From Acidobacteriota bacterium (GTDB lineage: Bacteria > Acidobacteriota > Vicinamibacteria > Vicinamibacterales > CAVVIG01): 64,000 bases of DNA. A program made the position numbers and the translations under genes. The stretch covers positions 1 through 64,000 of the forward strand of contig JAOBWF010000300.1 in assembly GCA_025463215.1 (NCBI GenBank), given 5' to 3'. Under the pieces are notes generated by a model. That model was given only the letters and a program-made list of their open reading frames with translations. It had not been told where the DNA came from and ran no database searches. Below are positions 20,105 to 59,611 of this stretch, piece after piece. The stretch's first letter is position 1; every line of letters begins with the position of its first letter.

Positions 20105-20923
20105 CTATTCGAAGTCCGCGAGCACGCCCTTGAATCGCTCGAAGAATGCGCTGCCTAGCGCGAACGTCCCCAGGCACATCACGACGTAGACCGTCAATAC
20201 CGAGGGTGCCGGCCAGCGGCCATGCAGCATCGAATCGCGGTACATCTCGGTCAGGTAGTAAATGGGATTCAGATAGATCACCCATCGCCACTTGTCCGGC
20301 ACCATCTCGGGCTTGATGCCGATCGGCGACAGGAACATCAACATGAAGACGAACAGATTGACGAAGTAGGTCACATCCGGGAGCGCCACGGTCAAACTCG
20401 CGAGGATCCAGGTGAGGCCGGAGAGCCACATTACCTGGAGCGCGATCACGACGGGTAGCCAGAGCACGTGCCAGCTCAGCGCGCGGTCGCCGAGGAGCAG
20501 TACCAGCACGAGCCCAATGCTGACGAACTGACTCGCCATGCCGACGAGCACTGCGCGCACCGGAATGAGCTCGATCGGCAGCATCACGTTTTTCACGAGG
20601 TGGATATTCTGCTTGACGGACAATCCGCCGGTCGTCAACGCCTCCATGAAGCCGAGGTAAGGCACCAGGCCGCAGAACACATACAGGACATAGTCGAAGC
20701 TGCTGAAGCCTTCGAACCGCATCTTGAAGACGACCATGTAAATGAACAGGTAGACCGACAGCAGCAGCGCCGGCTGCAGGATGACCCAGACCATACCCAG
20801 GACCGATCCCGCGTGCCGCTTCGCCAGTTCCACGCGGGTAATCGACGCCAGCAGGCGCCGATACTTGTAGATGATTCCCGCCATCTTCCTCGAGTCGCCA
20901 ATCAGCGCGCGGAGCAACCTCAC
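20105..20923 (-). CDS. ABC-2 type polysaccharide export permease (Wzm-like)
   Basis: About 272 residues with six predicted helices. An amphipathic cytoplasmic N-terminus (RLLASITRVELAKRHAGSVLG) precedes QPALLLSVYLFIYMVVF. Further helices cover LYVFCGLVPYLGFMEAL, SQFVSIGLVLVLLL, VVIALQVMWLSGLTWIL, YFVNLFVFMLMFLSPIG and VLTVYVVMCLGTFALG. WRWVIYLNPIYYLTEMYRD is the re-entrant loop typical of Wzm/TagG/KpsM. It would form a homodimer channel moving the lipid-linked glycan across the inner membrane, paired with the Wzt-type ATPase at 62379, 41 kb upstream on the same strand. GTG 20923 (GTGA overlap) is preferred; ATG 20944 would add seven residues. Confidence 0.9.
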   Translation of the reverse strand: MRLLRALIGDSRKMAGIIYKYRRLLASITRVELAKRHAGSVLGMVWVILQPALLLSVYLFIYMVVFKMRFEGFSSFDYVLYVFCGLVPYLGFMEALTTGGLSVKQNIHLVKNVMLPIELIPVRAVLVGMASQFVSIGLVLVLLLGDRALSWHVLWLPVVIALQVMWLSGLTWILASLTVALPDVTYFVNLFVFMLMFLSPIGIKPEMVPDKWRWVIYLNPIYYLTEMYRDSMLHGRWPAPSVLTVYVVMCLGTFALGSAFFERFKGVLADFE

Positions 20924-22944
20924 GATGCGATCTCGAATCGCCATGTGCGCTGACCGTCCAGCGTGGTGCGCATCGACAATTCGACCGAGCTGCACGGCCA
21001 CTTGACGCCGTACGACGGCGAGTACGCGGCCGGCTGCACCGACGCGTCCAGGTCGTCTGGATATCGCAGCGTCCAGCACGCCGTGGCGGTCCTCAAGGTC
21101 AGCGCCCCACGGGCTGACATCGACGCCGCGACCTCTCGAGCGAAATGAAAATGCCAGCGCAGCGTATGGGTTCCCGAACCTTCCAGCCTGTCGACGATGT
21201 TCAACGTCCCCGACCGCTTGTCGAGACGCAGCCTGCGCTCGTGAGTGACAGGCGCGTCGAGCCGCTCGTATCCGTGATGGCGACCGACGTACTCGGCACA
21301 CGCGGCGGTGTCTTCGAATGCCAGATGCTCGGCGCGCGCGCTTTCAAACATGCGGAAAATCCACTCGGGACGCGTGTCGTTCTGCTCGATGCCGTCAATC
21401 ATGAGGGTGCTATGGTACCCAGTACCACGGAACAGGTTTCGCGCGTCGGGATCGGAAGTGTACACGTAGCTGCCAGGATCGACGATCAGCGGCGTGCCGC
21501 GCGGATGGTATTCGAACGACAGCTGATCGTTGTGCTTGTGGTTGCCGAACCCTTTGGTGCCGACGATGCCGTTGGTCACCAGGAGATACGACGCCTCATC
21601 GCCGCGCATCACGGCAACGCCGGCATCGCGACATAGCCGGCTTGCGGTGATTGCTGCGACAGGCGCGGGCGGAGTCAGCCCCCACCACGCGGCTTCCCAT
21701 GCGGCCACGTCGCCGGCGATCGCTGCCCAGGCCGGCTCGCCGAACATCGCCGATGCCGGGCCGAAGAGATGCCGCGCGTCCTGCGGCGTCGTCGTTCCGT
21801 ATCCGCTGAGCACGTGCAGGCGGCCGTCGTCGGCATCGCCGACCTGGGGCATCAGACCGTCGGGGCGCTGGACTGCAGCGAGATAGGCAATCATCGCGCG
21901 CACCCGTTCCTGGTAGTGGGGCGACAACGGCGCCTGCTGGTGATCCGCCAGGCGCTGACAGCCGAGGAACAGTTCGGCGACGAGGCGATGGTACGGAATC
22001 GACGATTCGAAGTCGGCGCCGTCGGGCAGTACCTGCACGTCGATTTCCTGCTCGAGCGACTCGCGCGCGAACGCCTGCCAGGCAGCGCCCTGGGGCACGT
22101 CCGCGAACACCGCACCGAGGAACCAGAGCCCCGCGACGTTGCTGAGGAAGTGATTGCTGGTGACCTCGTAAGTGTTCTCGAGGTTGGCACGGATGAAAAT
22201 GCCGTGATCGAACAGCGCGGAATACGCACGCCGCCAGAACTCCGGTTCCAGCGCTGAGCTGTCTGAGATGAGTTCGAGCGCGATGGCCCAGCTCACGGCG
22301 CGAAGCGCCACATCCATCGTGCACGTCCAGTTGATGCCGAGTCCGACCGGGTTGGCCTCCATGAAGTCGTCCAGTTCGCCGGCGATCTCGCGCGCGAACC
22401 GCTCGTCTCTGGTCAACAGGAATGCTTGCCCAAGCGTCGCCCAATGCTGACAGCGCGCCAGCTCCCACGGATATTTCACGTCCGCATTGGCCGGACGCAT
22501 TTCGTACAGCTTCCATTCCTTGTAGGGAACGCCTCTCGGAAAGCGCAGGCGCCTGACCGGATCGAGATACCAATCAATCGGCCGATAGCCGTCGTGCCCC
22601 AGGCGGTCGGGATCGATCGGCACAAATGGTCCGCTGCCCAGCAGGTTGAATTCGTGACTGAGCACGCGTTCCGCCTGCGCGATCACCGCCGCGATCCGTG
22701 CCGGCCGGTTCGGGATCGAGCGGTCGAGCGATTCGATCGACACGCCGGTGTAGAGGCGCGACCGTGCGCGGAGTGCACGGTGCCAGCCGGTGATCTCGAG
22801 GCCGCCGCTCGCGAGCGCGTCTTCAAGCCGCGGTGGCGGCTGCGGCCGATCCGCCACGGCGGCCGCGCCAGCGCGCACGAAGCGGAGTCTCGCCAGCCAG
22901 CGCCTCAACATCGCGGGGGCGCGGATGTGGGCGACGTGAACCAC
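20920..22944 (-). CDS. Heparinase II/III-fold protein, copy 1
   Basis: 674 residues. HEFNLLGSGPF (about 93-103) and KYPWELARCQHWATLGQA begin the (alpha/alpha) toroid; INWTCTMDVALRAVSWAIAL and SNHFLSNVAGLWFLG follow. The beta-sandwich part has KGFGNHKHNDQLSFEYH, the His-rich motif of the Hepar_II_III domain, then GTPLIVDPGSYVYTSDP. Family members cleave or epimerise uronate-containing glycans. No signal peptide is visible, which is odd for a secreted lyase. Cut and paste with biosynthesis genes suggests chain editing or epimerisation. GTG 22944 is taken as start; ATG 22911 would also work. Paralogue of 28453-30531. Confidence 0.8.
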   Translation of the reverse strand: MVHVAHIRAPAMLRRWLARLRFVRAGAAAVADRPQPPPRLEDALASGGLEITGWHRALRARSRLYTGVSIESLDRSIPNRPARIAAVIAQAERVLSHEFNLLGSGPFVPIDPDRLGHDGYRPIDWYLDPVRRLRFPRGVPYKEWKLYEMRPANADVKYPWELARCQHWATLGQAFLLTRDERFAREIAGELDDFMEANPVGLGINWTCTMDVALRAVSWAIALELISDSSALEPEFWRRAYSALFDHGIFIRANLENTYEVTSNHFLSNVAGLWFLGAVFADVPQGAAWQAFARESLEQEIDVQVLPDGADFESSIPYHRLVAELFLGCQRLADHQQAPLSPHYQERVRAMIAYLAAVQRPDGLMPQVGDADDGRLHVLSGYGTTTPQDARHLFGPASAMFGEPAWAAIAGDVAAWEAAWWGLTPPAPVAAITASRLCRDAGVAVMRGDEASYLLVTNGIVGTKGFGNHKHNDQLSFEYHPRGTPLIVDPGSYVYTSDPDARNLFRGTGYHSTLMIDGIEQNDTRPEWIFRMFESARAEHLAFEDTAACAEYVGRHHGYERLDAPVTHERRLRLDKRSGTLNIVDRLEGSGTHTLRWHFHFAREVAASMSARGALTLRTATACWTLRYPDDLDASVQPAAYSPSYGVKWPCSSVELSMRTTLDGQRTWRFEIAS

Positions 22945-44300: not shown

Positions 44301-45141
44301 GATGCGAACGCGCGGCCGCGGGTGACTCGGTGGTCTTCGCCCAAGCGGCTGCCATGCAGTAACAGACGACGAACAGGACGCAGGCCGGCAGGCAGCTGGT
44401 CCGGATGTTCGCCGTAAATGCGACGAGAAAGCCTGCCGCGACCAGCGTCAGCGTGTGCGTCCAGAGGCGGGACCACAGGCGGAAGCTCAAGGCCATCGCG
44501 AAGACACTGATATTGAGGACGATCGCGGGCAGGATCAAGGTGTACTGCGAGTAGCGCAGCCCCTCCAGATCCAGAATGATCATCCAGTACGCGGCGAGCA
44601 TCACCGCGACCAGCGGTAACCCGGACCCCGCGCGGAACAACACGAAGGCGAACAACAACGCGATCACCGCAGCCGAGCCGCACAAGGCCCACTCCAGCGA
44701 GGCAAGCGACGAGTCCCGACGGACGGCCAGGATAGCGGCGGTTGCAACCATCAGGGAGTTCTCGCCGTTCAGGTAAGGAATCGTCAGTGACCGGCAGTAG
44801 GCCCCGATCGTTCCTGCCTGGCGAATGGCGACCTGGTCGAGTGGTGTCCGAACCAATTCCGCGTGACTGTGAAGATAGCCGGCGATCCGATGAGCCTCAG
44901 ACAGACTCGCGGGCTGACCGCAAAACACCCAGTTGAAGGCCAGCTCCAACGAAATCGACGGATGGCCGTCGCCCCCGATCCCGGCGTCCTCAGGCGCGTG
45001 TTTCCAAAGCACGAGCCCGGATCCCACCATCAGCACGAGGACCAGGACGAGCGAACTCAACGCGGTTCGTCCCGACCGACGGCCCACCACGAGCTCGATC
45101 AGCCCGCCGACGAGCGAACCCTCTCCCCTGATCTTGATCAC
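41317..45141 (-). CDS. Giant polytopic membrane protein (1274 residues), fusion of two families that are separate genes at 31622 and 33643
   Basis: GTG start 45141. Residues 1 to about 490 follow the 33643 protein (NGENSLM, IAHPLVLGLAVPMN, TYLGPLYEKALF). Residues about 530-1130 follow the 31622 protein (SFPADFLARSYAAVA, then a soluble stretch with LFVPVYASMM). Residues about 1162-1261 are an extra C-terminal beta-rich module shared with other proteins here. Twenty or so helices are expected. The coding strand carries ten consecutive G (encoding Gly-Gly-Gly near EYGGGVYG). Large two-lobed GT-C-like proteins are known for arabinosyl- and other polyprenyl-phosphate transferases, but no recognised catalytic motif is seen. 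Function unknown; surface-glycan modification is the likely setting. Confidence 0.7.
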   Translation of the reverse strand: MIKIRGEGSLVGGLIELVVGRRSGRTALSSLVLVLVLMVGSGLVLWKHAPEDAGIGGDGHPSISLELAFNWVFCGQPASLSEAHRIAGYLHSHAELVRTPLDQVAIRQAGTIGAYCRSLTIPYLNGENSLMVATAAILAVRRDSSLASLEWALCGSAAVIALLFAFVLFRAGSGLPLVAVMLAAYWMIILDLEGLRYSQYTLILPAIVLNISVFAMALSFRLWSRLWTHTLTLVAAGFLVAFTANIRTSCLPACVLFVVCYCMAAAWAKTTESPAAARSHRIRTLTSLTVVSVIAFAAGYSVFQFGVIKRLTPSVTTGNYTYHPIAHPLVLGLAVPMNDLARREHIEWNDGAGLELAQRAIPEATYLGPLYEKALFSYYRSLWRNHPKEMLRLYIVKFSLAGVSLLEWSNRGEYGGGVYGTVLVALRGLPSGLLVICLCASVIVYSAWRWMYAQTLSAFVLMLVSVAALLVQLEASIIMPEFYMQYQSVLMFGLLFLCMSAYEAAARNLPVVERWAHECQLELGRSAAVGGATAGLLYVAGRHAARQSNVAATWIDGPAIAAAVLYGCVGLGLYLLFRFATGRALAVLGTAAVVLSSARFLNNPSLPDLAGVALTLGALVAMSWMVVRERPTALMLRMVVVLGLLLGLGKGLHTSPLLPAPLVALSLVAFAQFSRRTGIRTRVIAAAVLITVTTVVAWPTGSANLEPRRTWSSVVDQFSSANDGRLRLRRNPFSFDPLSVNGSRAALRDVFDRAEPPGTWTVNRPDRNGLGERDVLDLVASFPADFLARSYAAVAANMFNARTDGDIVERLLRPDVPSPIRTATGRLYAVVTIAALVSVGMIVVGAGAASFRLGGWLLLVLVYLTATAGMEISDTLSVALVKWWAITAGSAMVARAVFAGATKPRGIPGPEHLRRRGLRLAARRGAVFAVAASFIFAIALLTARAYQTRRLHAVIRSLSENPPDAWAKRGHVEVQGRVARVLLDRSGGDAGATGFLAGKFGSANCDLMAVPVKVSWPANSGLAGVARSQDINVRVPKGLMQSTELFVPVYASMMVETGDADDAPRGAVDVELPASGAECLAGMRLVGRNPRTSLAYVLQVPDGWQDVPAYDTFARWERGDAEERIMTSPAGIAVSRQLVSLPVEPLSATTALIDTSVQQRGSRLFVHGEPPGRFSYLYVTNPAIIGRNRYLLAEGTVRKGGMTIGLLKGNAWSRAVNVTVPGGFLALIRVDDDAEYSVVVANDSPPETYAVVAQLDRIGIMATDQTSAERRLKR
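41359..41658 (-). other. Shared beta-rich module at the C-terminus of the giant membrane protein
   Basis: Encodes residues about 1162-1261. Landmarks SRLFVHGEPP, YLLAEGTVRKGGMTIGLL, AWSR, YSVVVANDSPPETY and AQLDRIGI line up with the module in the oxidoreductase (27735-28079) and in the 47071 protein. The neighbouring split homologue at 31622 lacks this tail. Confidence 0.6.
43890..43899 (-). repeat. Homopolymer tract of ten G (coding strand) inside the giant membrane protein gene
   Basis: Ten consecutive C on the plus strand, i.e. ten G in the coding strand, spanning Gly-Gly-Gly-Val codons at about residue 415 of 1274. A one-base slip would stop the protein. No other mononucleotide run of this length was noticed in the window. 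Confidence 0.9.
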
Positions 45142-47070: not shown

Positions 47071-49617
47071 TCACCATGCGCGCATCAGCTCCTCTGCGTA
47101 ACCGAGCTCCCGGACAATCGCCACACCGCCAGCGGCCACCGTAAAGCGGCTGGCGGCGGCGCCAGCGCCGTTGCAGTTGGCGACGACGACAAACACGCTG
47201 CGGTTTGCACCCGCCGAGAAGCGGTGAACCGGCATCGCATCGGACGGCGCGACCAGCCATTGGCGCTGCCCCTCGTCAAGCACGCCGGTGCACACCCGTC
47301 CGGCCTGGATCGTCAACGGCAGACGGACGATCGCCTCGGCCTCCGGACGCACGTCGACCCTCGCACTGACCAGTTGATAGCCGGACGCAGAGGCGTTGCC
47401 GCTCACGACGAGCCCGGCGCCATCGCGCGCCGCGGTGACACCATCGGACGCTGTGGCCACCCACGTGGAGAGAGGCGGTAACGGGTGCTCGGCGGCCCGT
47501 TCACGCGCGAGCCGGTAATCGTCGACGCCAGTTACGCGAAACGCGTCGATCGTGCCGAGCCGCGCGTCCGCAGCGTCGCTGAACAAGTTCACCGCCAGCA
47601 GGCCGCCGTCATGGTGCTGCAGCAGATAAACCGGCTCGCGCCGGAGTCGGACGGCGACATCGATCGGTGGAGGCAGATCGCCGACAGCGAATTCGTGCGC
47701 GATGCCGCGACCGGCCACGAGCAGCTGCCGCATGCCGCTCTGCGGCGGCGGCGCGACCCGGAATAGATACCAACCTGCGACCAGATCCGCGACAGCGGTA
47801 TCCGTCGCCACTGAGTTCCACGCTTGCGAGCCCTTCGACACGCGCAGCCCGCCTCGTGCGCGAGACCAGGCGATACCGGGCAGCGGCATAACTTGGCGGA
47901 GCCAGCGACCCAACGGGGCATCCCAGACGCTGACGAGCGGTATCCGCTCGGCGGCATCGTCCGCCGTTCGACGCGCGTAGATTCGTGTCGTGCCGTAGGG
48001 GGTCGCCGACGTCATCGCGGCGACCGAAAACTCGACTGCCGGCAGGAGAGACCCAATCAGGCGGACCGGATCTTTCGCCGGGTCCGTGAATGGAAACACG
48101 ATCGCGTCGGTATTTTGCGGATGTCCCCAGACGAGAAAATCCGGCGCGAGTGAGGCGCGCTGGTCGACCGGCACGCGAGACATGATCCGCAGCGCGGTCT
48201 CCATCGAGACGAGCTGGATGCGGCGCGGTCCCTCGGCGGCGAGCGCATAGCTGCCCCACGCGATCGACTGACGAGGCACGGTGCCAAGCACTTCGTCGAT
48301 GTATGGCGTGATGCCAATCCACGATCGGGCGATCCGCACGCGGGCGTCGTCTGCGGCAGTCGCGACGGTGACGTTCAGCCGCGCGACGAACAACGCAACG
48401 GCGATCGCAGCGACACACTCGATCGCACGTCCTCTGCGCGGCAGCCGTCGGCGGACTGCCCCAAGGACGACATACAGCGTGGCGGCGCCAATCCATACAC
48501 CGATCAGCTGCGGCAGGATGACGTAACCAGTATGGAAATTCTGATACAACGCGAGGCCGGCGACATAGAACACGAAAACCGTCACCCCGGGGACAATCAA
48601 CGCGGCCGTCTCCACGCGAGCGGACCCGGGCTTCGCCAGGGCGATCGCGATCAGTGCAATGGCCAGAATCAAGGTGAGCGCAACGGCCACGACATAGATG
48701 CCGTCTACGCCCGCCGAGGCAAACCTGTAATGCTCCTTCCAGACGGCCAGCGGGCTTGCAGTGCCGAGGGCGGAGGTCGTGGTCGGCCGGACGATCGAGC
48801 GATAGCTCAGGATCAGCCGCAGGTGATCCCTGACCCGAAAGCCGAACGACGCATAAAAAATCACCGCGCTGGTGCACCAACCTGCGAGCAACGCCGCGAC
48901 CCAGCCGGTGATGGCGCCGCGTTCGGGCCCGGTCCCGCGACTGCGCGACAGGCAGAGTACGGAGACGGCCAGCATCGTGAGCGAAGCTGGAATCAGCGTG
49001 GCGGCGACTAGATGGGACAGTGCGCCGCAGCCGGCGGCGAGTCCCGTCGTAAACCAGTGGCGGGCCAACCCGGTCATGATCGCCTTGGCCGCGGCCCAGA
49101 TCGCAAGCGCGGCAAACAGCGTCACGAAAGGATCCGGCCTGACCATCGGCCATTCGAGCTGCGATACCGCGTAACAGACGCCCACGCCGGCAACGGTCGT
49201 GGCGATCGCGCCGCGCAGGCCGGTGAACAAGCGGCCGGCGACCAGCGGAACGGCCAGCGCGGCAAGCAGGTGAAGCGAGCGCAGCACCTTTACGCTAAAG
49301 CCGAACAGCCACACGATACCGGCGCCGGCAAAAAAGTACCACGGGCCGTAGTTGTAGAACCCGCGGTAACGCTGCGCGGCGGAGAACGGCTCCAACGGCA
49401 CCGCAGGATCGCCGTAACGGCCGACCTGAAGCAGTGAGGCGCTGATCACCGACAACCCGTCGTCGACCGACCAATAGGGATAGTGGTCGACGTAGGCGAA
49501 GAAATGATGCACCGATTGGATGGCGAACACGGCGAAGAGGAAGAGGAGGATCTGCGACAGGACACGTTCTGCGCCGGGGTCCGGCGCCGTGGGCGAACCG
49601 GGCAGCGACGTCACCAT
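47071..49617 (-). CDS. Polytopic GT-C (PMT-like) glycosyltransferase with large C-terminal beta-rich region
   Basis: 848 residues, ATG 49617 sharing one base with the asparagine synthase stop (TGATG). First helix about 19-38; the following loop YWSVDDGLSVIS (about 47-58) has the Asp pair expected at a GT-C catalytic site; FYNYGPWYFF comes next. About ten helices to residue 400. The remaining ~440 residues are soluble, with WNSVATDTAVADLV and GWYLFRVAPPPQSG in a first beta region, and the shared module at about 735-835. Probably transfers a sugar from a polyprenyl phosphate donor outside the inner membrane. The long C-terminal part could bind the glycan acceptor; that is inference. Confidence 0.75.
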   Translation of the reverse strand: MVTSLPGSPTAPDPGAERVLSQILLFLFAVFAIQSVHHFFAYVDHYPYWSVDDGLSVISASLLQVGRYGDPAVPLEPFSAAQRYRGFYNYGPWYFFAGAGIVWLFGFSVKVLRSLHLLAALAVPLVAGRLFTGLRGAIATTVAGVGVCYAVSQLEWPMVRPDPFVTLFAALAIWAAAKAIMTGLARHWFTTGLAAGCGALSHLVAATLIPASLTMLAVSVLCLSRSRGTGPERGAITGWVAALLAGWCTSAVIFYASFGFRVRDHLRLILSYRSIVRPTTTSALGTASPLAVWKEHYRFASAGVDGIYVVAVALTLILAIALIAIALAKPGSARVETAALIVPGVTVFVFYVAGLALYQNFHTGYVILPQLIGVWIGAATLYVVLGAVRRRLPRRGRAIECVAAIAVALFVARLNVTVATAADDARVRIARSWIGITPYIDEVLGTVPRQSIAWGSYALAAEGPRRIQLVSMETALRIMSRVPVDQRASLAPDFLVWGHPQNTDAIVFPFTDPAKDPVRLIGSLLPAVEFSVAAMTSATPYGTTRIYARRTADDAAERIPLVSVWDAPLGRWLRQVMPLPGIAWSRARGGLRVSKGSQAWNSVATDTAVADLVAGWYLFRVAPPPQSGMRQLLVAGRGIAHEFAVGDLPPPIDVAVRLRREPVYLLQHHDGGLLAVNLFSDAADARLGTIDAFRVTGVDDYRLARERAAEHPLPPLSTWVATASDGVTAARDGAGLVVSGNASASGYQLVSARVDVRPEAEAIVRLPLTIQAGRVCTGVLDEGQRQWLVAPSDAMPVHRFSAGANRSVFVVVANCNGAGAAASRFTVAAGGVAIVRELGYAEELMRAW
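47113..47415 (-). other. Shared beta-rich module at the C-terminus of the 47071 membrane protein
   Basis: Encodes residues about 735-835: GYQLVSARVDV, AIVRLPLTIQAGRVCTGVL, RQWL, SVFVVVANCNGAG, SRFTVAAGGVAI. Position by position it is the closest partner of the oxidoreductase insert at 27735-28079. Confidence 0.6.
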
Positions 49618-51533
49618 CACAGCCGCTCGCCGTCGACGAAGGTGCGATACCACAGCTCGAGAATCACCAAGGCGAACAATTTCTTGGCGACCATGTAGTC
49701 GCCGGCCCGCGCCATCGCCTTGAGCCTGCGCACATAATCGGGCTTGACGATGTCGCGGCGTCGGACCCGAACGTCGTCGAGATTGTCCTCGACGAGCTGC
49801 CAGACTCGCGGGTCGGACAGATAATGTTGCAGCGGCATATGGAACGGCATCTTGGTCGCGCCGGCTACGGTGTGGCGCAGCCGTGTCGCCGCCAGGCGGC
49901 GTAGCGCGACCTTGCTGCGACGGCCATCCATCTTCAGACGATCCGGAAACGTCGACAACAACTCCACAAACTGATGATCGAGGAACGGCACGCGGTTCTC
50001 GAGGCCGTGCGCCATCGAAACGCGATCCTGTTTCAGGTTGATCAACTCAGGGAGCCAGTGGCGAAACTGCAGCGACAGGACCCGCCCGAGCACCGTGGCG
50101 CCGGCCGGGACACCGGCGAAGGAATCGTCCGCACACCCCGATATCTGCGCGTGGAAGCCGTCGGTGTACACGTCGTTCAGCTCGTCGCGACTGTAGAGCG
50201 CCAGCAACTCGTCGTAGAGCGCGCGCATGTCACGCTTCGGGAGCATTCCGAGGACTTTGACCAGCCGCTCGCGGGCGTCGCGGGCAACGTCGAGTGGAAG
50301 GTCGGCAAGCGCCTCGATCAATGGCAGGGGCAACCGCTTCGCGATCGACGCCCCTGCCGTTGCGAACAGCCAGCCTGGAAGGCGCTCCGACCATGTCGTC
50401 ATCGACGCGATCGCGCGCAGATGTTGATAGCCGCCCAACACCTCGTCCGCGCCATCTCCCGTGATGACCGTCTTCAATCCCGCCCGAGCGGCCGCCCGCG
50501 CCAGCACGTACTGGGCGACGACGATGGTATCCCCCACCGGCTCTTCGAGGACCCGAACGATCCGCGGCAGCTCCAGCAGTTCGTCGACGCCGCACATGAC
50601 CGTCTGATGCTCGCAGCCGAGCTCCTTCGCGGTCTGCTCGGCAACCGCGGCTTCGCTGTAGCCTTCAGTGAAATGGATCGAGAAGGAGCGAATCGCGTGG
50701 CTGGACACGCGAGCCATTTCGCTGACCAGCGTCGATGAATCCACTCCGCCGCTCAGATACGCGCCGACCGGAACGTCCGCAATCATCCAGGTCTTCACCG
50801 CATCCGCGAACCCCGCCTCGAACTCCGCCTCGAAATTGCGGCCGCCGTCCTGCGCCACGTTCAGAGGCATCGTGTAGTACCGATGCTGACGCACTCGATC
50901 TTCGCTCCATTGGATGTACGCGCCTTCCGGCACGCGGTGCACACCTCTGAAGAGCGTCTCGTCGCCGTATGGAAATCTGGTCTGGAGAAAGCGCGGAATC
51001 GCCTGCTGGTTGACGTCGACCGAATAGCCGGCGCGAATCAGGGGGGCGATCTCCGACGCAAAGTGCAGCGCGCCACTGCTGTTCTGGTGATAGTAGAGCG
51101 GCTTGATCCCGAACCGATCCCGCACCAGGTACACCGTTCGCTGCTGCTGATCGAGCAGGGCAAACGCGAACATGCCGCGCAACCGCTGCACCATCGCAAT
51201 GCCGTACTCCTCATACAAGTGGATCAGCGTTTCGGTGTCGGACCGCGTTTTGAACGTGTGGCCGCGCGCCACCAGTTCCGTGGTCAGCTCCCGGTAATTG
51301 AAAATTTCGCCGTTGAAGGTGACCGCGACGCCGCTCTCGTCGCTGACCATCGGTTGGGCGCCGCCATCGATGTCGATGATTGAGAGCCGCCGGTGGCCGA
51401 GACCGACGTGTCCTGCGACGAAGGTGCCCTCGCCGTCGGGCCCCCGGTGAGCGAGGGAACGGGTCATTATTGCGAGTACGTCACGCGATACGGCGCGCCC
51501 TCCCGGTTCGACGATGCCGCAGATGCCGCACAC
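49617..51533 (-). CDS. Asparagine synthase family amidotransferase, copy 2
   Basis: 638 residues, GTG start 51533. CGICGIVEPGG gives the nucleophilic Cys2; HRGPDGEG, GHRRLSIIDIDGG and FNGEIFNYREL are glutaminase motifs; GAYLSGGVDSSTLV the ATP loop; ITGDGADEVLGGYQHL the second ATP site. FLDHQFVELLSTFP matches the C-terminal part. This copy resembles the amidotransferases found in exopolysaccharide and exosortase-type loci more than the other two. Expected to amidate a carboxylate, probably of a uronic acid. Coupled to the toroid-fold gene three bases upstream and to the GT-C gene by a one-base overlap. Confidence 0.85.
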   Translation of the reverse strand: MCGICGIVEPGGRAVSRDVLAIMTRSLAHRGPDGEGTFVAGHVGLGHRRLSIIDIDGGAQPMVSDESGVAVTFNGEIFNYRELTTELVARGHTFKTRSDTETLIHLYEEYGIAMVQRLRGMFAFALLDQQQRTVYLVRDRFGIKPLYYHQNSSGALHFASEIAPLIRAGYSVDVNQQAIPRFLQTRFPYGDETLFRGVHRVPEGAYIQWSEDRVRQHRYYTMPLNVAQDGGRNFEAEFEAGFADAVKTWMIADVPVGAYLSGGVDSSTLVSEMARVSSHAIRSFSIHFTEGYSEAAVAEQTAKELGCEHQTVMCGVDELLELPRIVRVLEEPVGDTIVVAQYVLARAAARAGLKTVITGDGADEVLGGYQHLRAIASMTTWSERLPGWLFATAGASIAKRLPLPLIEALADLPLDVARDARERLVKVLGMLPKRDMRALYDELLALYSRDELNDVYTDGFHAQISGCADDSFAGVPAGATVLGRVLSLQFRHWLPELINLKQDRVSMAHGLENRVPFLDHQFVELLSTFPDRLKMDGRRSKVALRRLAATRLRHTVAGATKMPFHMPLQHYLSDPRVWQLVEDNLDDVRVRRRDIVKPDYVRRLKAMARAGDYMVAKKLFALVILELWYRTFVDGERL

Positions 51534-51536
51534 CGG

Positions 51537-53189
51537 CTAACGGGGATCCATCCGCCACTCGGCGCCCGCCGTGGTCAATTTGCCGCGCAGCGCCATACGC
51601 CGGGCCGCCGGCCAGCTCACGAGCAGCGGGCCGGGTCCAGCGCTGCGCGCATCCGCGTAGAGTGCCGAGCCCATGTGCAACGCGGTGCATTGCTCGACCG
51701 CCGACAGCTCGCCGGAGTCCCACGGGGTTTCAATCTCATCGTGCACATGGATGCCATCAGCCTCGACCCGCAGGGTGCGCTGGTGAACGACCGCCGGCCG
51801 CCGCTTCCGTTGGATCAGCACGCGGACCAAGGTTACCTTGAGCCAGCGGCTCACCATCGGCAGGCGCCCGACGGTCAGCGTCACCAGTCGGAACAGCATG
51901 AAGAGCGGCGAGCCGAAGACCTTCGTCTCGAGCGACTTCCACACGACGGTCGTCTGCAGCGTCGCGCCGGCGGGGGCATAAATGGCCTCCGGGGACCGTT
52001 GAAAATCCTGACTGATGAATCGTTCGGCGCCGCGTTCGAACATCAGGGCCGAGTGTCGCGCGGTCAGGCGCCGCGACGCCTTGTCGAACACCGACACGGT
52101 GCCGCCCTTGCTCACGCCGACGACGGCGTAGTACGCGGGCTCATTGACGACCCACAAGCCAGCTTCCGGAAAATAACGGCGAAACGGGTCCCGTTCATAT
52201 GGCAGGAGCTGAGTGTCGGCGAGCGATTCGGCGGCATCATGGGCGACGAGCACGTTGTTCAGCATCGGCATGAGGTTGAATTCGTCCATGCTCCAGACGC
52301 CGCAGACACGCCGATCGCACATCGAGCGCCGCAGCGCCGAGGCAATGCTGGCGCTCGCAGGCGAAACGGCCGCGAGCATCTCGAATCCGGCCGGGTAATA
52401 AAACTCCGTGTTGCGGCTGCCGTACTCGCCGCCGATCGTGCCGTCCGGATGGACGAAGTGCGCGAGGAAGTCCGCGAAGCCGGCGAGCGCGGCGCGCGTC
52501 CGTTCGCATCCGGTCAGCTTCCAGTAGGCAGCGAGGTAGAAAAACGCGTGGGTCCCATAGCCGATGTCGGCACCGCCATATTCAACCATCCAGCCTTCGG
52601 ATGACTGGTGCGCGAGGATGCGGTCGAGGAACACCCGCGCCCGTACTGAGAAACGCGGCGCGTCAAGCGTCCGCGCCGCGAGTTCCAGTGACGCAGCGGC
52701 CGCCGCCAGATGGTTCGACAGCATTCCGTGCGTCTCGTCGTGGTGGCAGAGCCAGTCACCGGCGCGCACGAGCGCGGCCTCGACCCGGCCCCGAAGGCGT
52801 GGCTCGAGCCGCTCGCCCCAGTGTGCGAGCGTGCTGCCCACGTAGAAACCCGTGAACGCCGTGGCTGCGAGGCACTGCTCGAACGGATACGCTTCGTCAT
52901 AGGCGCCGTTCGCGTGTTGCAGCGACACCCAATATTCCAGCGCCCAAGCGACCCACGACTCGACGGCGGGCGCATGAAACAGCTGGTTACCGGGGGCATC
53001 CAAATCGTGCAGCCGGGCCAGCGCGTAGACCCCCTCCTGAAACCGTGGGTAGGGAAAGTCCGTGAACTTCCAGGCCCAATGTGTCCGGGAAAAGCTGCCG
53101 CGCGTTCGGGAGTGCGGGTTTCGATCGAGCAGTGACACGAGACGCGCCGACTGCTCGACCGCCGCGTCGCGATACACGTCGACGCTCAC
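51537..53189 (-). CDS. Toroid-fold protein, possibly heparinase/alginate-lyase-like
   Basis: 550 residues, GTG 53189 (GTGA overlap). Helical first half with TDFPYPRFQEGVYALARLHD, YDEAYPFEQCLAATAF, GMLSNHLAAAAASLELAA, VEYGGADIGYGTHAFFYLAA and GGEYGSRNTEFYYPAGFEML, a pattern of repeated helix pairs with conserved aromatic and acidic residues as in (alpha/alpha)6 toroid lyases and epimerases. From about 340 on it becomes beta-rich (YYAVVGVSKGGTVSVFDK). No signal peptide. The His-rich HxHxD motif of the two heparinase-fold proteins is missing, so it is at best a distant relative. Function unknown; acting on the glycan made here is likely. Confidence 0.6.
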   Translation of the reverse strand: MSVDVYRDAAVEQSARLVSLLDRNPHSRTRGSFSRTHWAWKFTDFPYPRFQEGVYALARLHDLDAPGNQLFHAPAVESWVAWALEYWVSLQHANGAYDEAYPFEQCLAATAFTGFYVGSTLAHWGERLEPRLRGRVEAALVRAGDWLCHHDETHGMLSNHLAAAAASLELAARTLDAPRFSVRARVFLDRILAHQSSEGWMVEYGGADIGYGTHAFFYLAAYWKLTGCERTRAALAGFADFLAHFVHPDGTIGGEYGSRNTEFYYPAGFEMLAAVSPASASIASALRRSMCDRRVCGVWSMDEFNLMPMLNNVLVAHDAAESLADTQLLPYERDPFRRYFPEAGLWVVNEPAYYAVVGVSKGGTVSVFDKASRRLTARHSALMFERGAERFISQDFQRSPEAIYAPAGATLQTTVVWKSLETKVFGSPLFMLFRLVTLTVGRLPMVSRWLKVTLVRVLIQRKRRPAVVHQRTLRVEADGIHVHDEIETPWDSGELSAVEQCTALHMGSALYADARSAGPGPLLVSWPAARRMALRGKLTTAGAEWRMDPR

Positions 53190-54043
53190 CGCGTTGCCAC
53201 GTTGCGCGCGCGAATGACGGTCAGCAGGCCCAAGCGCCGACTGAGCCACCGATGCAACCACGCGGGTATCGGTACGGGAAGCGCCCTCGCCGGGAAAAAG
53301 AAATATTCGACCCGATCGACCTCGAAATACTCGGAGACCATTTGGCGAAGTTGTGCCGGCGTATAGGCCCGTCCCAACGGGTTATCCTCGCCGTCGTACA
53401 TGCGGACGATCTGTTCCGCGTCGGATCGCTGCAGCATCGACTCGCGGCCACGACCGCGCAACCGCACCACGCGGCCGATCAGCCAGATCGTCAATCGCAG
53501 CAGACCGGGATGACGGAGCAGAAAATTCCGGCGGTAGACGGAGAGACACAATGTCCCGGCCGGCCGCAAGACCCGGGAAAACTCGCGAATGGCCGTGGTC
53601 GGCTGCGGTGTGTGGTGAATCACTCCCTGGCAATTGATGTGATCGATCGATCCCGTCTCATAAGGCAGATCCTCGGCGTTGCCGACCCTCACCCGGGCCG
53701 ACAAGCCGAAGATTTCAAGCGAGCGCACCGTCAGGTCGACTGCGGCCTGGGTCAGGTCGCACGCCTCCAGGTTGGTGAATCCATGCCTGGCCAGATACCT
53801 CACCCAGAACCCGGGACCGCAGCCCACGTCCAGCGTCCGTCCGTTCGGATCGAGATCGCGCGTGAAGATGTCGGACGGCGACCCCGCAAGACAGTCCTCC
53901 ATGTAGACACGCTCGTGTTCGGCGAACCACTCGCGCGATCCGGTCGGGTGGCTGCCCTCGCCGACGAACAGCGGCGACGATTCCCAGAAGCTGCGCACCT
54001 CGTCGAGGGTCGGGCTTGCCGCCGGCTGGACTCGCTCGCTCAC
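53186..54043 (-). CDS. Class I SAM-dependent methyltransferase
   Basis: 285 residues from GTG 54043 (GTGA overlap; a GTG one codon earlier is equivalent). The start region FWESSPLFVGEGSHPTGSRE resembles a group of glycan-locus methyltransferases. TLDVGCGPGFWVRYLA (70-85) is the SAM loop, LEACDLTQAAVDL the acidic loop, and HINCQGVIHHTPQP motif IV. The C-terminal part (RRLGLLTVIRARN) is basic. Same subgroup as 58817 and the methyltransferase part of the 22982 fusion. Acceptor unknown. Confidence 0.85.
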   Translation of the reverse strand: MSERVQPAASPTLDEVRSFWESSPLFVGEGSHPTGSREWFAEHERVYMEDCLAGSPSDIFTRDLDPNGRTLDVGCGPGFWVRYLARHGFTNLEACDLTQAAVDLTVRSLEIFGLSARVRVGNAEDLPYETGSIDHINCQGVIHHTPQPTTAIREFSRVLRPAGTLCLSVYRRNFLLRHPGLLRLTIWLIGRVVRLRGRGRESMLQRSDAEQIVRMYDGEDNPLGRAYTPAQLRQMVSEYFEVDRVEYFFFPARALPVPIPAWLHRWLSRRLGLLTVIRARNVATR

Positions 54044-55056
54044 CACACGCGCGCCTGGCCGAGCGATTCCTCGTAGTAGTAGTGACGGCGCGCGGTGCGC
54101 GGGCCGTCACGATCGGCGAGCGACTGATCGAGCCGCCATACGTCCGCCTCGATGTGAAACACGTGTCCGAGCAGGAAGTAGCCGACGGTCAGGTTCACCC
54201 AGAGGATCAGCAGGAGGCCGGTGACCATCACGAGGAAGATCGAGACGTCATGCATCAGGAGGTTGCGAATCGCCCAGATGCCGAACACGAGAATGGCGGC
54301 GCTCAGCAACGCGATCGTCGGCACGATGATCCGGCCGATGCCCTGCAGCACGCCGAAGGCGACGTGGGACGCCATCAGCCGGCGAATTTTGCTCCAGTCG
54401 GTCCTGCCGCCGCGGCTCTTGCGCTCATCGCTATCGGCCGGCCAGCTGAGAATCGCGGGCACCTCGCCGATCCGGTGGCCGAGCGACATCAGGCGGTGAG
54501 CGATCTCGAGATGCAACTCCTTGCCGTCGTTCGCGAATCGCTGACCCTGGATGACCCACGCCCGGTAGGCGCGGGTCATGCCCGTAGTCATCGAGATGCT
54601 GGAGGGGTACAACATCCGCAGCAGCCGGTTCCCCCATCGGCTCAGCACGATGCGGAACCACGGCACGTTGCGGTAGCCGCCGCCCGCCACGTGCGGCGAC
54701 GCGAACACCGCGTCGATGCCGGCATGGCGATCGAGCGCGTCCAGCATGACCTGGACGATGTCCTGTCCCCACGAGAGATCTGCCTCGGTCGTGACGATGA
54801 TGTCACCGCCGGCCTCGGCAAAGCCGGTCCGCATCGCGCGGCCCCGGCCGAAGTTGGCCTTGTGCGTGAAAATGCGGAACCGATCGTCGGTCCCGATCGC
54901 GCGCGCCGCCGCCGCGACCGTGCGGTCGGTGCTGCCGTCGTTGATGATGAGCACTTCCGCGGGCACGCTGAGGGCGTCGAGGCAGGCCCGCAGCTGGCCG
55001 ACGGCGCCGCCAATGCCCGCCTCTTCGTTGAATGCCGGACAGATGATGCTGACCAT
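54040..55056 (-). CDS. Family 2 glycosyltransferase with two C-terminal helices
   Basis: 338 residues. SIICPAFNEEAGI, INDGSTDRTV and TTEADLSWGQDI (EAD in place of DxD) mark the GT-A core. DWSKIRRLMASHVAFGVL precedes helices at about 240-262 and 272-292; the tail (HIEADVWRLDQSL) is long and charged. The overall plan is like polyprenyl-phosphate glycosyltransferases, but the sequence differs from the three GtrB-like copies. Start ATG 55056 shares one base with the third asparagine synthase homologue stop (TGATG). Could supply the donor for the 47071 GT-C protein; inference. Confidence 0.82.
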   Translation of the reverse strand: MVSIICPAFNEEAGIGGAVGQLRACLDALSVPAEVLIINDGSTDRTVAAAARAIGTDDRFRIFTHKANFGRGRAMRTGFAEAGGDIIVTTEADLSWGQDIVQVMLDALDRHAGIDAVFASPHVAGGGYRNVPWFRIVLSRWGNRLLRMLYPSSISMTTGMTRAYRAWVIQGQRFANDGKELHLEIAHRLMSLGHRIGEVPAILSWPADSDERKSRGGRTDWSKIRRLMASHVAFGVLQGIGRIIVPTIALLSAAILVFGIWAIRNLLMHDVSIFLVMVTGLLLILWVNLTVGYFLLGHVFHIEADVWRLDQSLADRDGPRTARRHYYYEESLGQARVW

Positions 55057-57056
55057 CAGAAGCAGTCTTCGCGGCCTTCAATCCAGGAGGCATGCCAGAG
55101 CACCGCGTTGAGCACCGTCCACAATTGGAAGCTGTAGCCGCCGGCGCCGTCCATCTGCCGCTTGAGCAGATCGGTGAAATAACCGTTGTCGAAGAAGCCG
55201 TCGCGCGCGAGCTCCGAGCGCTCGAACGCCGCGAGACTGCGCCGACCGAAGTCCCCTTCCCGGAACCACTCTTCCATCGGCGCGCCGAACCCCTGCTTGC
55301 GGCGGTAAATCAGATCGTGATCGATGTACGGCTCCGCCGCGCGCTTCAGCACGTGCTTGCCGACGCCGTCCTTCAACTTATAGGCGGCCGGCAGCCGGGT
55401 CGCGAACTCGACGACGTCGTGATCGAGAAACGGCACGCGCGCCTCGATGCCATGGGCCATCGTGAGCTTGTCGACGCGCATCAGCAGATGCTCGGGCAGG
55501 CGCAGCTTCATCTCCATGTACGGTATCTTCTGCAGCACCGTCGGCTCGCTCACCTCGCCGTCGAGCCCGCCCAGATATTCGCGGACCACCGCATCGCTGT
55601 GTAGGGTGGCGTGGCCGCCGGGCATCAGGTTCTCGATCGGACAGTCGACCTCCTGCCGAAATGGCGCGCGATCGGGCGTGAGCCGCTGCCGCATCTCGCC
55701 CCACCAGCACACCGCGCCGCCCCAGAACAGTTCCTGTCCGGTTTCCGCGCGCCGCTGGATCTCCCGATCCTCGCCGTTCATGCCGGGCGTACGCGCTTTG
55801 AGGTGGGGCAGGAAGCGGCGCCATCCCTGCGTCCCGTCCCGCGCCGGCCGGTATACCGTCTCGTACTTGTCACGGTAATGTTCGCACCACCAGTAGCCGA
55901 GGAAATTCTCGTCGGCGCCTTCCCCCACCTGGACGACGGTCGTGCCCGTCTGCTTCACCAGCCGGGCGAGAAAGTACAACGGGATGCAGACGTTATCGGC
56001 GATCGGCTCGTCCTGCAGCCTGACGAGCAACGGCAAAAACTGCTGCGCCTCGCGTCCGTTGATCAGCGTCTCGTGATGATCGGTCTTGTAGCGGGCCGCG
56101 ACGCGCCGCGCGAACTGGAATTCGTTGTAGTCCTCGTTCCCCTCGTAGCCAATCGTGAACGTCGTCACGGGGCGGCTCATCAGCTCGCTCATGAGCGCCA
56201 CGTTCAACGACGAGTCGACGCCGCCCGACAGCAGTACGCCGAACGGCACATCGGACACCATCCGCCTGGCAATCGACTGTTTGAGCAGTCGCGTCAACTC
56301 CGCGACCGCCTCGTCTTCGCTGAGATCCGTTTCGGTGAGCGCCTGCGACCGCGACGGGCGGCAATCCCACCACGATCTGGCGCGGGCGTGGCCGTGCTGG
56401 TCGATCGTGACCAGGTGCCCGGCGGGCAGCTTGAAAATGCCGCGAAACAACGTCAGCGGCGCGGGAGTGACAATGAACGTGAGGTAGTGCCAAAACGCGG
56501 TGCGATCCATTTCCGGCGACACATCGGGATGTGCGAGCAGGGCGCGGATCTCCGACGCGAACAGCCATTCACCGCCGCGGGTGCGCGTGATGTAAAGCGG
56601 CTTGATGCCGACACGATCGCGGACCAGGTGCACAACCGGTCGATCGCGGTCGCGTGCATCGTACACCGCGAAGGCGAACATGCCGAAGAATCGGTTGACG
56701 CAATCAACGCCCCACTCCTCGTAGGCGTGAAGCAGGACCTCTGTGTCTGAATGGTCAGTGCGCCAGCGGTACTTGCCCAGCGCCGACAACTCGCGGCGGA
56801 TTGCCGCGTGATTGTAGATCTCGCCGTTGAAGGTCAGCGCAACCGTGCCGGCGTCGTTCAGCATCGGTTGCGACGCTGCATCGGAGAGATCGATGATCGA
56901 CAGCCGCCGATGGCCGAGGACGCACGATCGATCCGGCGCCGACCACAATCCATGGCCGTCGGGGCCGCGGTGCGACATGCGATCGCGCATCCGCGACACG
57001 ATGTCCGGACCGACGGTGGCTCCGCCGGGCTTGAAAGCGCCGACTATTCCGCACAT
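55056..57056 (-). CDS. Asparagine synthase family amidotransferase, copy 3
   Basis: 666 residues, ATG 57056. CGIVGAFKPGG with Cys2; HRGPDGHG, GHRRLSIIDLSDA, FNGEIYNHAAIRREL; LLSGGVDSSL; GEGADENFLGYWW; RRKQGFGAPMEEW. It is closest to copy 1 (for example TDHSDTEV, HAxEEWGxDC and RVDKxTMxxGxEARVPFLDH are shared), while copy 2 is more distant. A one-base gap separates it from the unknown pair at 57058. Presumed role: glutamine-dependent amidation of a sugar carboxylate. Confidence 0.85.
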   Translation of the reverse strand: MCGIVGAFKPGGATVGPDIVSRMRDRMSHRGPDGHGLWSAPDRSCVLGHRRLSIIDLSDAASQPMLNDAGTVALTFNGEIYNHAAIRRELSALGKYRWRTDHSDTEVLLHAYEEWGVDCVNRFFGMFAFAVYDARDRDRPVVHLVRDRVGIKPLYITRTRGGEWLFASEIRALLAHPDVSPEMDRTAFWHYLTFIVTPAPLTLFRGIFKLPAGHLVTIDQHGHARARSWWDCRPSRSQALTETDLSEDEAVAELTRLLKQSIARRMVSDVPFGVLLSGGVDSSLNVALMSELMSRPVTTFTIGYEGNEDYNEFQFARRVAARYKTDHHETLINGREAQQFLPLLVRLQDEPIADNVCIPLYFLARLVKQTGTTVVQVGEGADENFLGYWWCEHYRDKYETVYRPARDGTQGWRRFLPHLKARTPGMNGEDREIQRRAETGQELFWGGAVCWWGEMRQRLTPDRAPFRQEVDCPIENLMPGGHATLHSDAVVREYLGGLDGEVSEPTVLQKIPYMEMKLRLPEHLLMRVDKLTMAHGIEARVPFLDHDVVEFATRLPAAYKLKDGVGKHVLKRAAEPYIDHDLIYRRKQGFGAPMEEWFREGDFGRRSLAAFERSELARDGFFDNGYFTDLLKRQMDGAGGYSFQLWTVLNAVLWHASWIEGREDCF

Positions 57057-57057: not shown

Positions 57058-58002
57058 TTATTTCGGCCTCACCACGAAGCGGCGCCAGCCCCGGGTCATG
57101 AATTCGTACTGGTGCTGCAACTCGCCGATGCGGCGATCTCTGATGGCGACGGTCTCGGCGTGTTCGGCCTGCTGGCTGGCGAGCATGCGGTCGCGCAGAC
57201 CCACTGCCTCGATCAGTTCGGTGACGCGCTGCTCGAGCGCGGCGAACGCATGATCGCGATGGCCCAGCGCCGGATGGAAGACGCTCTCTGCGTAGCTCAC
57301 AAATTCGCTCGCAGCGACGCGCAATCCAGCCGCGGATGGCAGCATCGGGATCGGCGATGCGTCGTCGTATGCAGTGAGCTTGCTCCCGAGATGGTGCTCG
57401 AGAATCGCCAGGTCGGCGGCCGCGGGCTGATGATCATCCACGTGACGGGTTCCGGACTGCTGCCACCGGTCATAAAACTCGTCGATCAGCCGGCGACAGG
57501 CGCTGATATATTCGGCCACCTTGCGGGGGCGATCCATGCGGGCGAGCAGGTGATCGAGATCAAACCGGTAGACATACGGATGGGGCAAGGTGTGAGCGAG
57601 CAACAACCCGACGCCGAGGAACAGCGCGACGCGCTGTTCGAAAAGCGATTGCACCTGTTCGTTGTACAGGCTGTGCGCCTCGGAGCCGATCGCGCTCGCG
57701 AACTTGCGCGCCAAAATCCACTGCAAGGCTGGAGGAGACTCGAGGAAATAATTCATCTCCAGAGGCCCGCTGTCACCGTGCGCGTGGAGAACGCGCTCAC
57801 GCAGCCAGCCGCGCGTGGACAGCCATTCGCAAGTTGACCGAGACGCAATCGCGTGCAGGCGGTCGCGTGTGACGACGTGCTCCAGGCGATCACAGAGTGC
57901 TGCCAGCGGAGTTCGATCCTCCACCCCGGAGTTGACGATCAGCAACACGTTGCCCGGCGGCAGCCGAAGTTCTGGCCACGTGGTGACGCCGACCTCAGTC
58001 AC
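57058..58002 (-). CDS. Unrecognised protein, member A of a tandem paralogous pair
   Basis: 314 residues, GTG 58002 (GTGA overlap). I do not recognise the family. It opens with GNVLLIVNSGVEDRTPL and contains LEMNYFLESPPALQWIL, NEQVQSLFEQRVALFLG, AHTLPHPYVYRFDLDHLL and RRLIDEFYDRWQQSG, each matched in member B (57999-58820). The core (about 20-185) is alpha/beta and suggests a Rossmann-like start followed by helices. The C-terminal ~60 residues (RVTELIEAVGLRDRM...RRIGELQHQYEF) look like a coiled coil. No signal peptide or membrane helix. Lies between a methyltransferase and an amidotransferase gene. Confidence 0.75.
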   Translation of the reverse strand: MTEVGVTTWPELRLPPGNVLLIVNSGVEDRTPLAALCDRLEHVVTRDRLHAIASRSTCEWLSTRGWLRERVLHAHGDSGPLEMNYFLESPPALQWILARKFASAIGSEAHSLYNEQVQSLFEQRVALFLGVGLLLAHTLPHPYVYRFDLDHLLARMDRPRKVAEYISACRRLIDEFYDRWQQSGTRHVDDHQPAAADLAILEHHLGSKLTAYDDASPIPMLPSAAGLRVAASEFVSYAESVFHPALGHRDHAFAALEQRVTELIEAVGLRDRMLASQQAEHAETVAIRDRRIGELQHQYEFMTRGWRRFVVRPK

Positions 58003-58820
58003 TCGTGCACGATCCGCCACAGAAGCTGCCGCGTGCGTCTGAACCTGGTCTTGAGCTCGCCGTCGAGCCGTCTGATCGCCTGGTCGCGAACCTGTATTTC
58101 GCGCACCAACGTGTCTCCCAACCGGACCACCAAGGCCGCAGCCGCCGCACCGTCAGCCATGTCGGGGGACAAGCGCACCGGAGCGTTCTCGTCGAATTGA
58201 ACGATCCCATCGCCCATGCTCGCCCGAACCGCACTCATGACGTCGGTCCGATCCATGTCGTCCGAATGACTCGGTCGTCCGGTTGCCTCCCACAAGGCGT
58301 AGCAGGTGGCCACCATGTCGCGAGCGCGCGATTCGTACTGAGCCAGCCTACGTTCGCGTCCCAGCCGATGGCACACGGCGGCGAGGTCGAACATGTACAG
58401 TTCCGGCAGCGGCAGTGCGTGCGCCACGAATACGCCGTGGCGCAGGAATGCAGCGACCCGTTGTTCGAAGACGTACTTCACCTCTTCGTTGTGCCGGCCG
58501 TGAGCAGCGGTGCCGATGACGAGGCCGAAGGCACGCTCGCCGGTCCAGCCGAGAACCGCCGGCGATTCGAGGAAGTGATTCAGCTCGAGTTCGTTGCCGG
58601 CCTGATCGCACGACGCGATGACTCTGGTCTCGGGGATTCCGCGGGTCGCGAGCCATCCGACCCACGACGACGGCGCGATCGCGTAGATCGTATGCGAGTG
58701 TCCAAGACGCTCGATCACGTCGGCGGCGATCGCCTCCTCGCTGGCGGTCGAGTTGACGATCAGCAGGGCGTCGCCAGCAATACTCGCGACCTCGGCCCAA
58801 CTCGCCAGGCGTGAGCTCAC
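57999..58820 (-). CDS. Unrecognised protein, member B of a tandem paralogous pair
   Basis: 273 residues, GTG 58820 (GTGA overlap with the methyltransferase stop). Shares with member A: DALLIVNS, LELNHFLESPAVLGW, IGTAAHGRHNEEVKYVFEQR, AFLRHGVFVAHALPLPELY, MFDLAAV and YALWEATG. Invariant FLESP, NE-x-V-x-x-x-FEQRVA and AH-x-LP-x-P-x-x-Y-x-FDL suggest a conserved active or binding site. The tail (DTLVREIQVRDQAIRRLDGEL) again looks like a coiled coil and is basic at its end. I know no family with this signature; function not assigned. Confidence 0.75.
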   Translation of the reverse strand: MSSRLASWAEVASIAGDALLIVNSTASEEAIAADVIERLGHSHTIYAIAPSSWVGWLATRGIPETRVIASCDQAGNELELNHFLESPAVLGWTGERAFGLVIGTAAHGRHNEEVKYVFEQRVAAFLRHGVFVAHALPLPELYMFDLAAVCHRLGRERRLAQYESRARDMVATCYALWEATGRPSHSDDMDRTDVMSAVRASMGDGIVQFDENAPVRLSPDMADGAAAAALVVRLGDTLVREIQVRDQAIRRLDGELKTRFRRTRQLLWRIVHE

Positions 58821-59611
58821 TTCCGACCCTTCAGCATCAAGTAGAAGCCGAGGCGGCTCGCCATCCAGCTCCAGAACTCGGGCGGGTAATCATCGAACGG
58901 AATAAGCGGCAGCTGATCCGGCGTCAGGTTGCGGACGATCAAGTCGTCAATCGCGAAGCGCGCAAACGCCTGTCGCAGCGTCTCTGGCGTTTGATGGTAC
59001 GTGCGCGGGTAGCCAAATCCGTCAGTGAACCAGTCGACCAGCCGGCGCGGTCCAAGCAGCTGCTCCAGATCGCAGACGATGCCGTAGTAGTACAGCGTCT
59101 TGACGTAGTAGTGGAGGCTCTGCCGGTTGTAGAACATGGTGATGACGCGGCCACCGGGTTTAAGAACCCGGTGAATCTCCGCGATCGCGCCGTCGAGATC
59201 TTCCACCAGGAGCAGCACGCCGAACGAGTAAACCAGGTCGAACGACTCGGATGCATACGGCAGACGCGTGGCGTTGGCCTGCACCACCGGCACCGTACCG
59301 CCGGTGACGACCTCGGTGAACCGACGTGATATCTCACAATGCTTCGGCGTCAGGTCGCAACCGAACGTATGCGCGCCGGCCGCCGCGAACTGCGACAGAT
59401 CGGCGCCCTGGCCACAGCCGATCTCGAGCACGCGCCGACCACGCCACGCCTGGAAGTCCACGAACTCGCGAATGAACGGGTACAGGGTGTACCGATGTGC
59501 CAACGCCGCCGCGCAGTACGACGGCGACAAGAACGCTTCGTCCTTGACGTAGCGCTGCGCCAGTTCGTCGTCGGACTCTTGGTAGTAGCGTTGAACGTCG
59601 GTTGGAGTCAT
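58817..59611 (-). CDS. Class I SAM-dependent methyltransferase
   Basis: 264 residues, ATG 59611. YYQESDDELAQRYVKDEAFLS begins the domain; VLEIGCGQGADLSQFAAAG (61-79) is the SAM loop, CDLTPKHCE the acidic loop, FDLVYSFGVLLLV motif IV and HRVLKPGGRVITMFYNR a late strand. Close to the methyltransferase part of the 22982 fusion (VLEIGxGxGxDLSQFA, RVLKPGGR). The tail has several aromatic residues (PPEFWSWMASRLGFYLML), perhaps membrane-associated. Divergent from the plus-strand gene at 59650 with 38 bases between. Confidence 0.85.
   Translation of the reverse strand: MTPTDVQRYYQESDDELAQRYVKDEAFLSPSYCAAALAHRYTLYPFIREFVDFQAWRGRRVLEIGCGQGADLSQFAAAGAHTFGCDLTPKHCEISRRFTEVVTGGTVPVVQANATRLPYASESFDLVYSFGVLLLVEDLDGAIAEIHRVLKPGGRVITMFYNRQSLHYYVKTLYYYGIVCDLEQLLGPRRLVDWFTDGFGYPRTYHQTPETLRQAFARFAIDDLIVRNLTPDQLPLIPFDDYPPEFWSWMASRLGFYLMLKGRK

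What the first reader, a model, noticed from the sequence alone, without database searches (positions are those of the whole stretch)
57058..58820. Tandem paralogues of an unrecognised family with coiled-coil tails
Both proteins carry LLIVNS near the start and FLESP, NE-x-V-x-x-x-FEQRVA and AH-x-LP-x-P-x-x-Y-x-FDL. These long invariant runs between otherwise diverged copies suggest a functional site. They sit among amidotransferase and methyltransferase genes. The helical tails recall the coiled-coil rulers of ABC-dependent O-antigen systems (WbdD), though no sequence kinship to WbdD is seen.
Basis: partly seen in the sequence, partly recalled or inferred. Interest (0 to 1): 0.7.

Follow-up and report, generated by a model that had tools for sequence, protein, structure and literature searches.

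The report
Orphan paralogues with a shared tail
Two neighbouring bacterial proteins of a type seen nowhere else sit in a cluster that builds and exports a surface sugar chain; one carries the same coiled-coil tail that related clusters put on methyltransferases in that spot, so the pair may be a new version of the protein that caps or measures the chain.

Summary
In detail: P0002 (57999-58820, -) and P0001 (57058-58020, -; the real start is probably GTG at 58002) are tandem paralogues, 36% identical over 221 aa (E=1e-43), with every quoted motif present. They match no Pfam, NCBIfam, PHROG or PDB entry, and I found no relative outside this genome. A weak model shows one Rossmann-like domain with no specific fold match.

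The new finding is the tail. A model built from six C-terminal coiled-coil tails on five methyltransferases and a glycosyltransferase in other genomes of the order ranks P0001 first (E=1e-12) and P0002 second, weakly, among 44 contig proteins. P0001 ends in GWRRFVVRP exactly as a methyltransferase and a glycosyltransferase from two other genera do. In several relatives the tailed protein lies between Wzt and, or directly before, an orthologous AsnB (70-82% identical). P0001 lies directly before that AsnB.

Best reading: P0001, with P0002, replaces the tailed methyltransferase in a WbdD-like position. The tail acts as ruler or dock; the unrecognised head probably caps the glycan or scaffolds a neighbouring enzyme. 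Tail and slot are shown; terminator role and head chemistry are inferred. Homology to methyltransferases was tested and not supported.

The parts
57999..58820 (-). P0002: orphan Rossmann-like head plus short helical tail (273 aa)
   Evidence: tail is second of 44 contig proteins with the tail model, E=0.012, weak
57058..58002 (-). P0001: paralogous head plus coiled-coil tail ending GWRRFVVRPK; the likely start is GTG at 58002 (ORF as given runs to 58020)
57061..57255 (-). P0001 C-terminal coiled-coil tail, homologous to tails of methyltransferases and a GT2 in related genomes
   Evidence: tail model built without window proteins: E=1.1e-12; exact GWRRFVVRP end in three genomes; whole-genome tail search
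58817..59611 (-). SAM methyltransferase without tail, GTGA-coupled to P0002
   Evidence: Methyltransf_11 E=3e-23; junction
55056..57056 (-). AsnB-type amidotransferase (666 aa), 1 base downstream of P0001; its orthologues mark the slot in relatives
   Evidence: Pfam; orthologues of 70-82% identity
62379..64000 (-). Wzt: ABC domain plus Wzt_C (gene runs past the window edge to contig position 64172)
   Evidence: ABC_tran 5e-19; Wzt_C 1.2e-6, just under its curated cut-off
20111..21343 (-). ORF holding the Wzm-like ABC-2 permease (open frame; the gene itself is shorter)
   Evidence: ABC2_membrane E=7e-13

Best explanation
P0001, helped by its paralogue P0002, is the coiled-coil-tailed component of an ABC-transporter-dependent glycan system. 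Its C-terminal coiled coil and basic, tryptophan-containing end dock it to the membrane or to partner enzymes and set a distance, as in WbdD. Its N-terminal head is an unrecognised Rossmann-like domain that takes the place of the SAM methyltransferase head found in the same slot of related clusters. The head most likely adds, or helps to add, the non-reducing-end cap that stops polymerisation and is read by the Wzt C-terminal domain, possibly together with the coupled methyltransferase at 58817-59611. Shown: paralogy, shared tail, slot, operon coupling, Wzt and a Wzm-like permease on the contig. Inferred: membrane docking, ruler function, capping and the head's chemistry.
For: A tail model built from six tails outside the window ranks P0001 first (E=1.1e-12) and P0002 second (0.012, weak) of 44 contig proteins. 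The exact GWRRFVVRP end occurs in three genomes of the family, on an orphan head, a methyltransferase and a GT2. Tailed proteins occur only at such glycan clusters in 12 genomes, one per cluster. Slot: Wzt-tailed MT-AsnB in G112 and in two G025 loci; tailed MT-AsnB in G123; tailed MT one gene before AsnB in G040. P0001 is directly before the orthologous AsnB. Coupled GTGA starts. Wzt_C and ABC2_membrane present. Wzt_C is 58-65% identical among tailed-MT loci but 43-53% to the window. Literature: terminators carry coiled-coil rulers, with heads that may be unrecognisable (PMC11231755; PMC3482155).
Against: No homology of the head to any enzyme; no activity is predicted. The core model is weak (pLDDT 56). 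P0001's coil is short. The tail is also on a GT2 in G009, so it need not mean 'terminator'. In G049 and in the G009 AsnB contig the gene before AsnB has no tail. The lower Wzt_C identity is partly general divergence (ABC domain 70-73% against 81%). A single MAG locus, with 7% contamination.
Confidence: 0.45

Rival explanations
1. The tail is a general docking device for glycan enzymes of this order, not a ruler. P0001 and P0002 are ordinary biosynthetic enzymes (for example a new transferase acting on the repeat unit) held at the membrane by it.
For: The same tail sits on a GT2 in G009, and on a zinc-ribbon methyltransferase unlike the others in G040.
Against: Only one tailed protein per cluster, although each cluster has many enzymes; in most loci it is a methyltransferase in a fixed slot near Wzt and AsnB.
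Confidence: 0.3
2. The heads are decayed class I methyltransferases that lost SAM binding: a pseudo-enzyme scaffold for the coupled methyltransferase.
For: The slot is usually held by a tailed methyltransferase; the core model is Rossmann-like and some Foldseek hits are methyltransferases; the beta4-helix-beta5 stretch has the same length by eye.
Against: A 20-sequence methyltransferase HMM gives no hit; the profile comparison is no better than shuffled columns (10.1 against mean 11.5); no glycine-rich motif I; the model shows no beta6-beta7 hairpin.
Confidence: 0.12
3. Fast-evolving accessory proteins with a structural or regulatory role that came in by horizontal transfer and are not catalytic at all.
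For: Absent from all searched relatives, including the other genome of the genus; no enzyme signature.
Against: Long invariant runs kept between old paralogues, and tight coupling to enzyme genes.
Confidence: 0.1

Closest known systems
Tailed Methyltransf_23-type proteins of order relatives (L042, L043, L060, L061)
   Same: Homologous tail; same slot before AsnB and, where resolved, after Wzt.
   Different: Their head is a SAM methyltransferase with motif I (LDYGSYFG or similar); the P0001 and P0002 heads are not detectably related.
WbdD (E. coli O8/O9a, Klebsiella O3/O5)
   Same: N-terminal head, C-terminal coiled coil, ABC-dependent glycan cluster with Wzt_C.
   Different: WbdD's head is a methyltransferase or methyltransferase-kinase. 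P0001's head is neither by sequence, its coil is shorter, and the ruler function is untested.
GT137 terminator ORF7 of Klebsiella O4 (PMC11231755)
   Same: A head with no recognisable domain, partly Rossmann-like, plus a C-terminal coiled coil in an ABC-dependent cluster.
   Different: GT137 is described as having two beta/alpha/beta domains and a TPR-like bundle; P0001 has one such domain. Sequence kinship was not tested.

Membership tests
WbdD-type terminators | C-terminal coiled coil after an N-terminal head | tested here: met
   Tail model E=1.1e-12 for P0001; long C-terminal helix in the model. P0002 is weak.
WbdD-type terminators | Methyltransferase or kinase head | tested here: not met
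   No Pfam hit at E=10; no hit with a methyltransferase HMM; profile comparison at shuffle level
WbdD-type terminators | ABC-dependent cluster with Wzt carrying a C-terminal glycan-binding domain | tested here: met
   ABC_tran, Wzt_C (just under cut-off) and ABC2_membrane on the contig
WbdD-type terminators | Coil length sets glycan chain length; end binds membrane and polymerase | not testable with these tools
   Needs experiment
Class I SAM methyltransferases | Glycine-rich motif I after beta1 | tested here: not met
   LLIVNS followed by G/T and acidic residues; no GxGxG
GT-B glycosyltransferases | Two Rossmann domains in one chain | tested here: inconclusive
   The weak core model shows one such domain followed by helices
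GT137 | Sequence kinship to ORF7 of K. pneumoniae O4 | not tested
   That sequence was not at hand; no Pfam match to P0001 or P0002

The most novel reading that the evidence does not exclude
The head domain founds a new family of chain-capping transferase, with a new cap chemistry, carried on a WbdD-like ruler whose head can be swapped (methyltransferase, glycosyltransferase, orphan) while the tail and the Wzt-AsnB setting stay.
Probability: 0.2. Interest if true: 0.75.

Novelty: new variant of a known kind. Interest (0 to 1): 0.5.

Why it matters
Coiled-coil terminators decide the length and end group of exported glycans, and known heads are few (methyltransferase, methyltransferase plus kinase, Kdo transferases). 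A conserved tail that accepts different heads in one locus type would show how new caps evolve, and would give a search handle (tail plus Wzt plus AsnB) for finding unknown capping enzymes outside the studied enterobacteria.

Tried and rejected
Family libraries: no match. PDB by sequence and by two-sequence profile: none. Relatives: none in 149, 162 and 193 genomes (relatives, order, class; overlapping sets), 396 of the phylum, or 349 and about 212 genomes from the phyla of other records. Searches drew largely the same genomes, and empty answers outside the phylum prove little. The weak hits were chance frames or unrelated proteins, or were tail-only. Two scans of GTDB contigs gave pattern matches only, all chance on reading the frames. 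Viral contigs, plasmids and phages: none. Methyltransferase kinship, suggested by eye, failed both tests. Structure: the full-length model is poor (pLDDT 51); the core model is weak (pLDDT 56, pTM 0.57), and Foldseek gives only generic Rossmann folds, best PDB E=0.007 with TM about 0.3. Clustering of invariant residues at strand ends was tested and not found. No membrane segment by hydropathy (max KD19 about 1.4).

Full report
The observation. The two ORFs lie on the minus strand at 57999-58820 (P0002, 273 aa) and 57058-58020 (P0001, 320 aa). They are paralogues: 36% identity over 221 aa, E=1e-43, with all four quoted motifs present and no gap in the NE...FDL stretch. Codon-position GC supports both as genes. 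The junctions are MT-GTGA-P0002, P0002-GTGA-P0001 if the GTG at 58002 is the start, and P0001-1 base-AsnB, so MT, P0002, P0001 and AsnB look translationally coupled.

The family. Neither protein matches Pfam, NCBIfam, PHROGs or the PDB. A profile of the pair finds nothing else in this genome or in the searched genomes of its order, class and phylum, nor in samples from other phyla. Two scans of the contigs of about 85,000 species, and scans of viral contigs, plasmids and phages, gave no relative. The contig scans needed exact short patterns, so distant relatives could be missed. The contig comes from an incomplete assembly with 7% estimated contamination.

The tail. The first relatives' search hit P0001's tail on a methyltransferase in G025 and a GT2 in G009. 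All three proteins end in GWRRFVVRP. A pattern search in 149 relatives finds that end without mismatch only in these three; the other three hits have one mismatch, and the reversed control pattern gives one hit in all. A tail model built without the window proteins (five methyltransferases, one GT2) scores P0001 at E=1.1e-12 and P0002 at 0.012, ranks 1 and 2 of 44 contig proteins. Across 12 whole genomes the tail appears at the seed loci only, one protein per cluster, with one further weak match adjoining the G112 tail. The seeds match by construction; the information is that nothing else does.

The slot. AsnB next to P0001 has orthologues of 70-82% identity at eight loci of the order. In G112 and in two G025 loci the order is Wzt, tailed methyltransferase, AsnB. 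In G123 a tailed methyltransferase precedes AsnB. In G040 a tailed zinc-ribbon methyltransferase lies one gene before AsnB, in a cluster with Wzt. Not every locus fits: G049 has a methyltransferase without a visible tail, G015's contig ends there, and in G009 AsnB is preceded by an untailed GT2 while its tailed GT2 lies on another contig, downstream of Wzt. In the window the order is Wzt, radical SAM, a plus-strand methyltransferase, methyltransferase, P0002, P0001, AsnB. A Wzm-like ABC2_membrane protein is on the same contig at about 20.1-21.3 kb.

What it works like. In E. coli O9a and related Klebsiella systems the terminator sits on a coiled-coil protein whose C-terminal end binds the membrane and the polymerase; the coil acts as a ruler, and Wzt's C-terminal domain reads the cap (PMC3482155; PMC11231755). 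In Klebsiella O4 the terminator head had no recognisable domain and proved to be a new transferase, GT137. P0001 has the same plan with an unrecognised head. Identity of the Wzt C-terminal domain is 58-65% among tailed-methyltransferase loci, 43-53% from those to the window and 35-43% to G040. This fits a different cap, though general divergence explains part of it.

The head. The core model (pLDDT 56, pTM 0.57) shows beta-alpha repeats of Rossmann type followed by helices. Foldseek hits are generic (SDR, GT-B N-domain, heptosyltransferase, methyltransferase), none with E at or below 0.001. I suspected a decayed methyltransferase from the beta4-beta5 spacing, but an HMM of methyltransferases and a profile comparison against shuffles gave nothing. 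Invariant residues are not enriched at the C-terminal ends of the strands, although the model is poorest in exactly the FEQRVA region.

Verdict. Shown: paralogy, absence of relatives in the searched collections, shared tail, slot and coupling. Inferred: ruler or docking role of the tail, capping by the head, cooperation with the coupled methyltransferase. I file it as a new variant that works like WbdD-type systems, not as a WbdD member, because the head test failed.

Noticed in passing
window 20920-22944 and 28453-30588: Two heparinase II/III-like proteins inside a glycan export cluster, hinting at a uronic-acid-containing polymer that the AsnB proteins might amidate.
   Followed up: no
window 18166-20103, 49617-51533, 55056-57056: Three AsnB-type amidotransferases in one cluster; the 55056 and 18166 copies are 48% identical, and two are Pfam-confirmed.
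   Followed up: partly
L041 (G009 contig C897), 6158-8101: A family 2 glycosyltransferase downstream of Wzt carries the same GWRRFVVRP tail as P0001: the tail moves between unrelated heads.
   Followed up: yes
L042 and L043 (G025 contigs C2 and C260): One genome holds two parallel Wzt, tailed methyltransferase, AsnB clusters with different tails.
   Followed up: partly
window 41317-45141 and 51537-53261: Two large ORFs (1274 and 574 aa) with no Pfam match at E of 1e-5.
   Followed up: no
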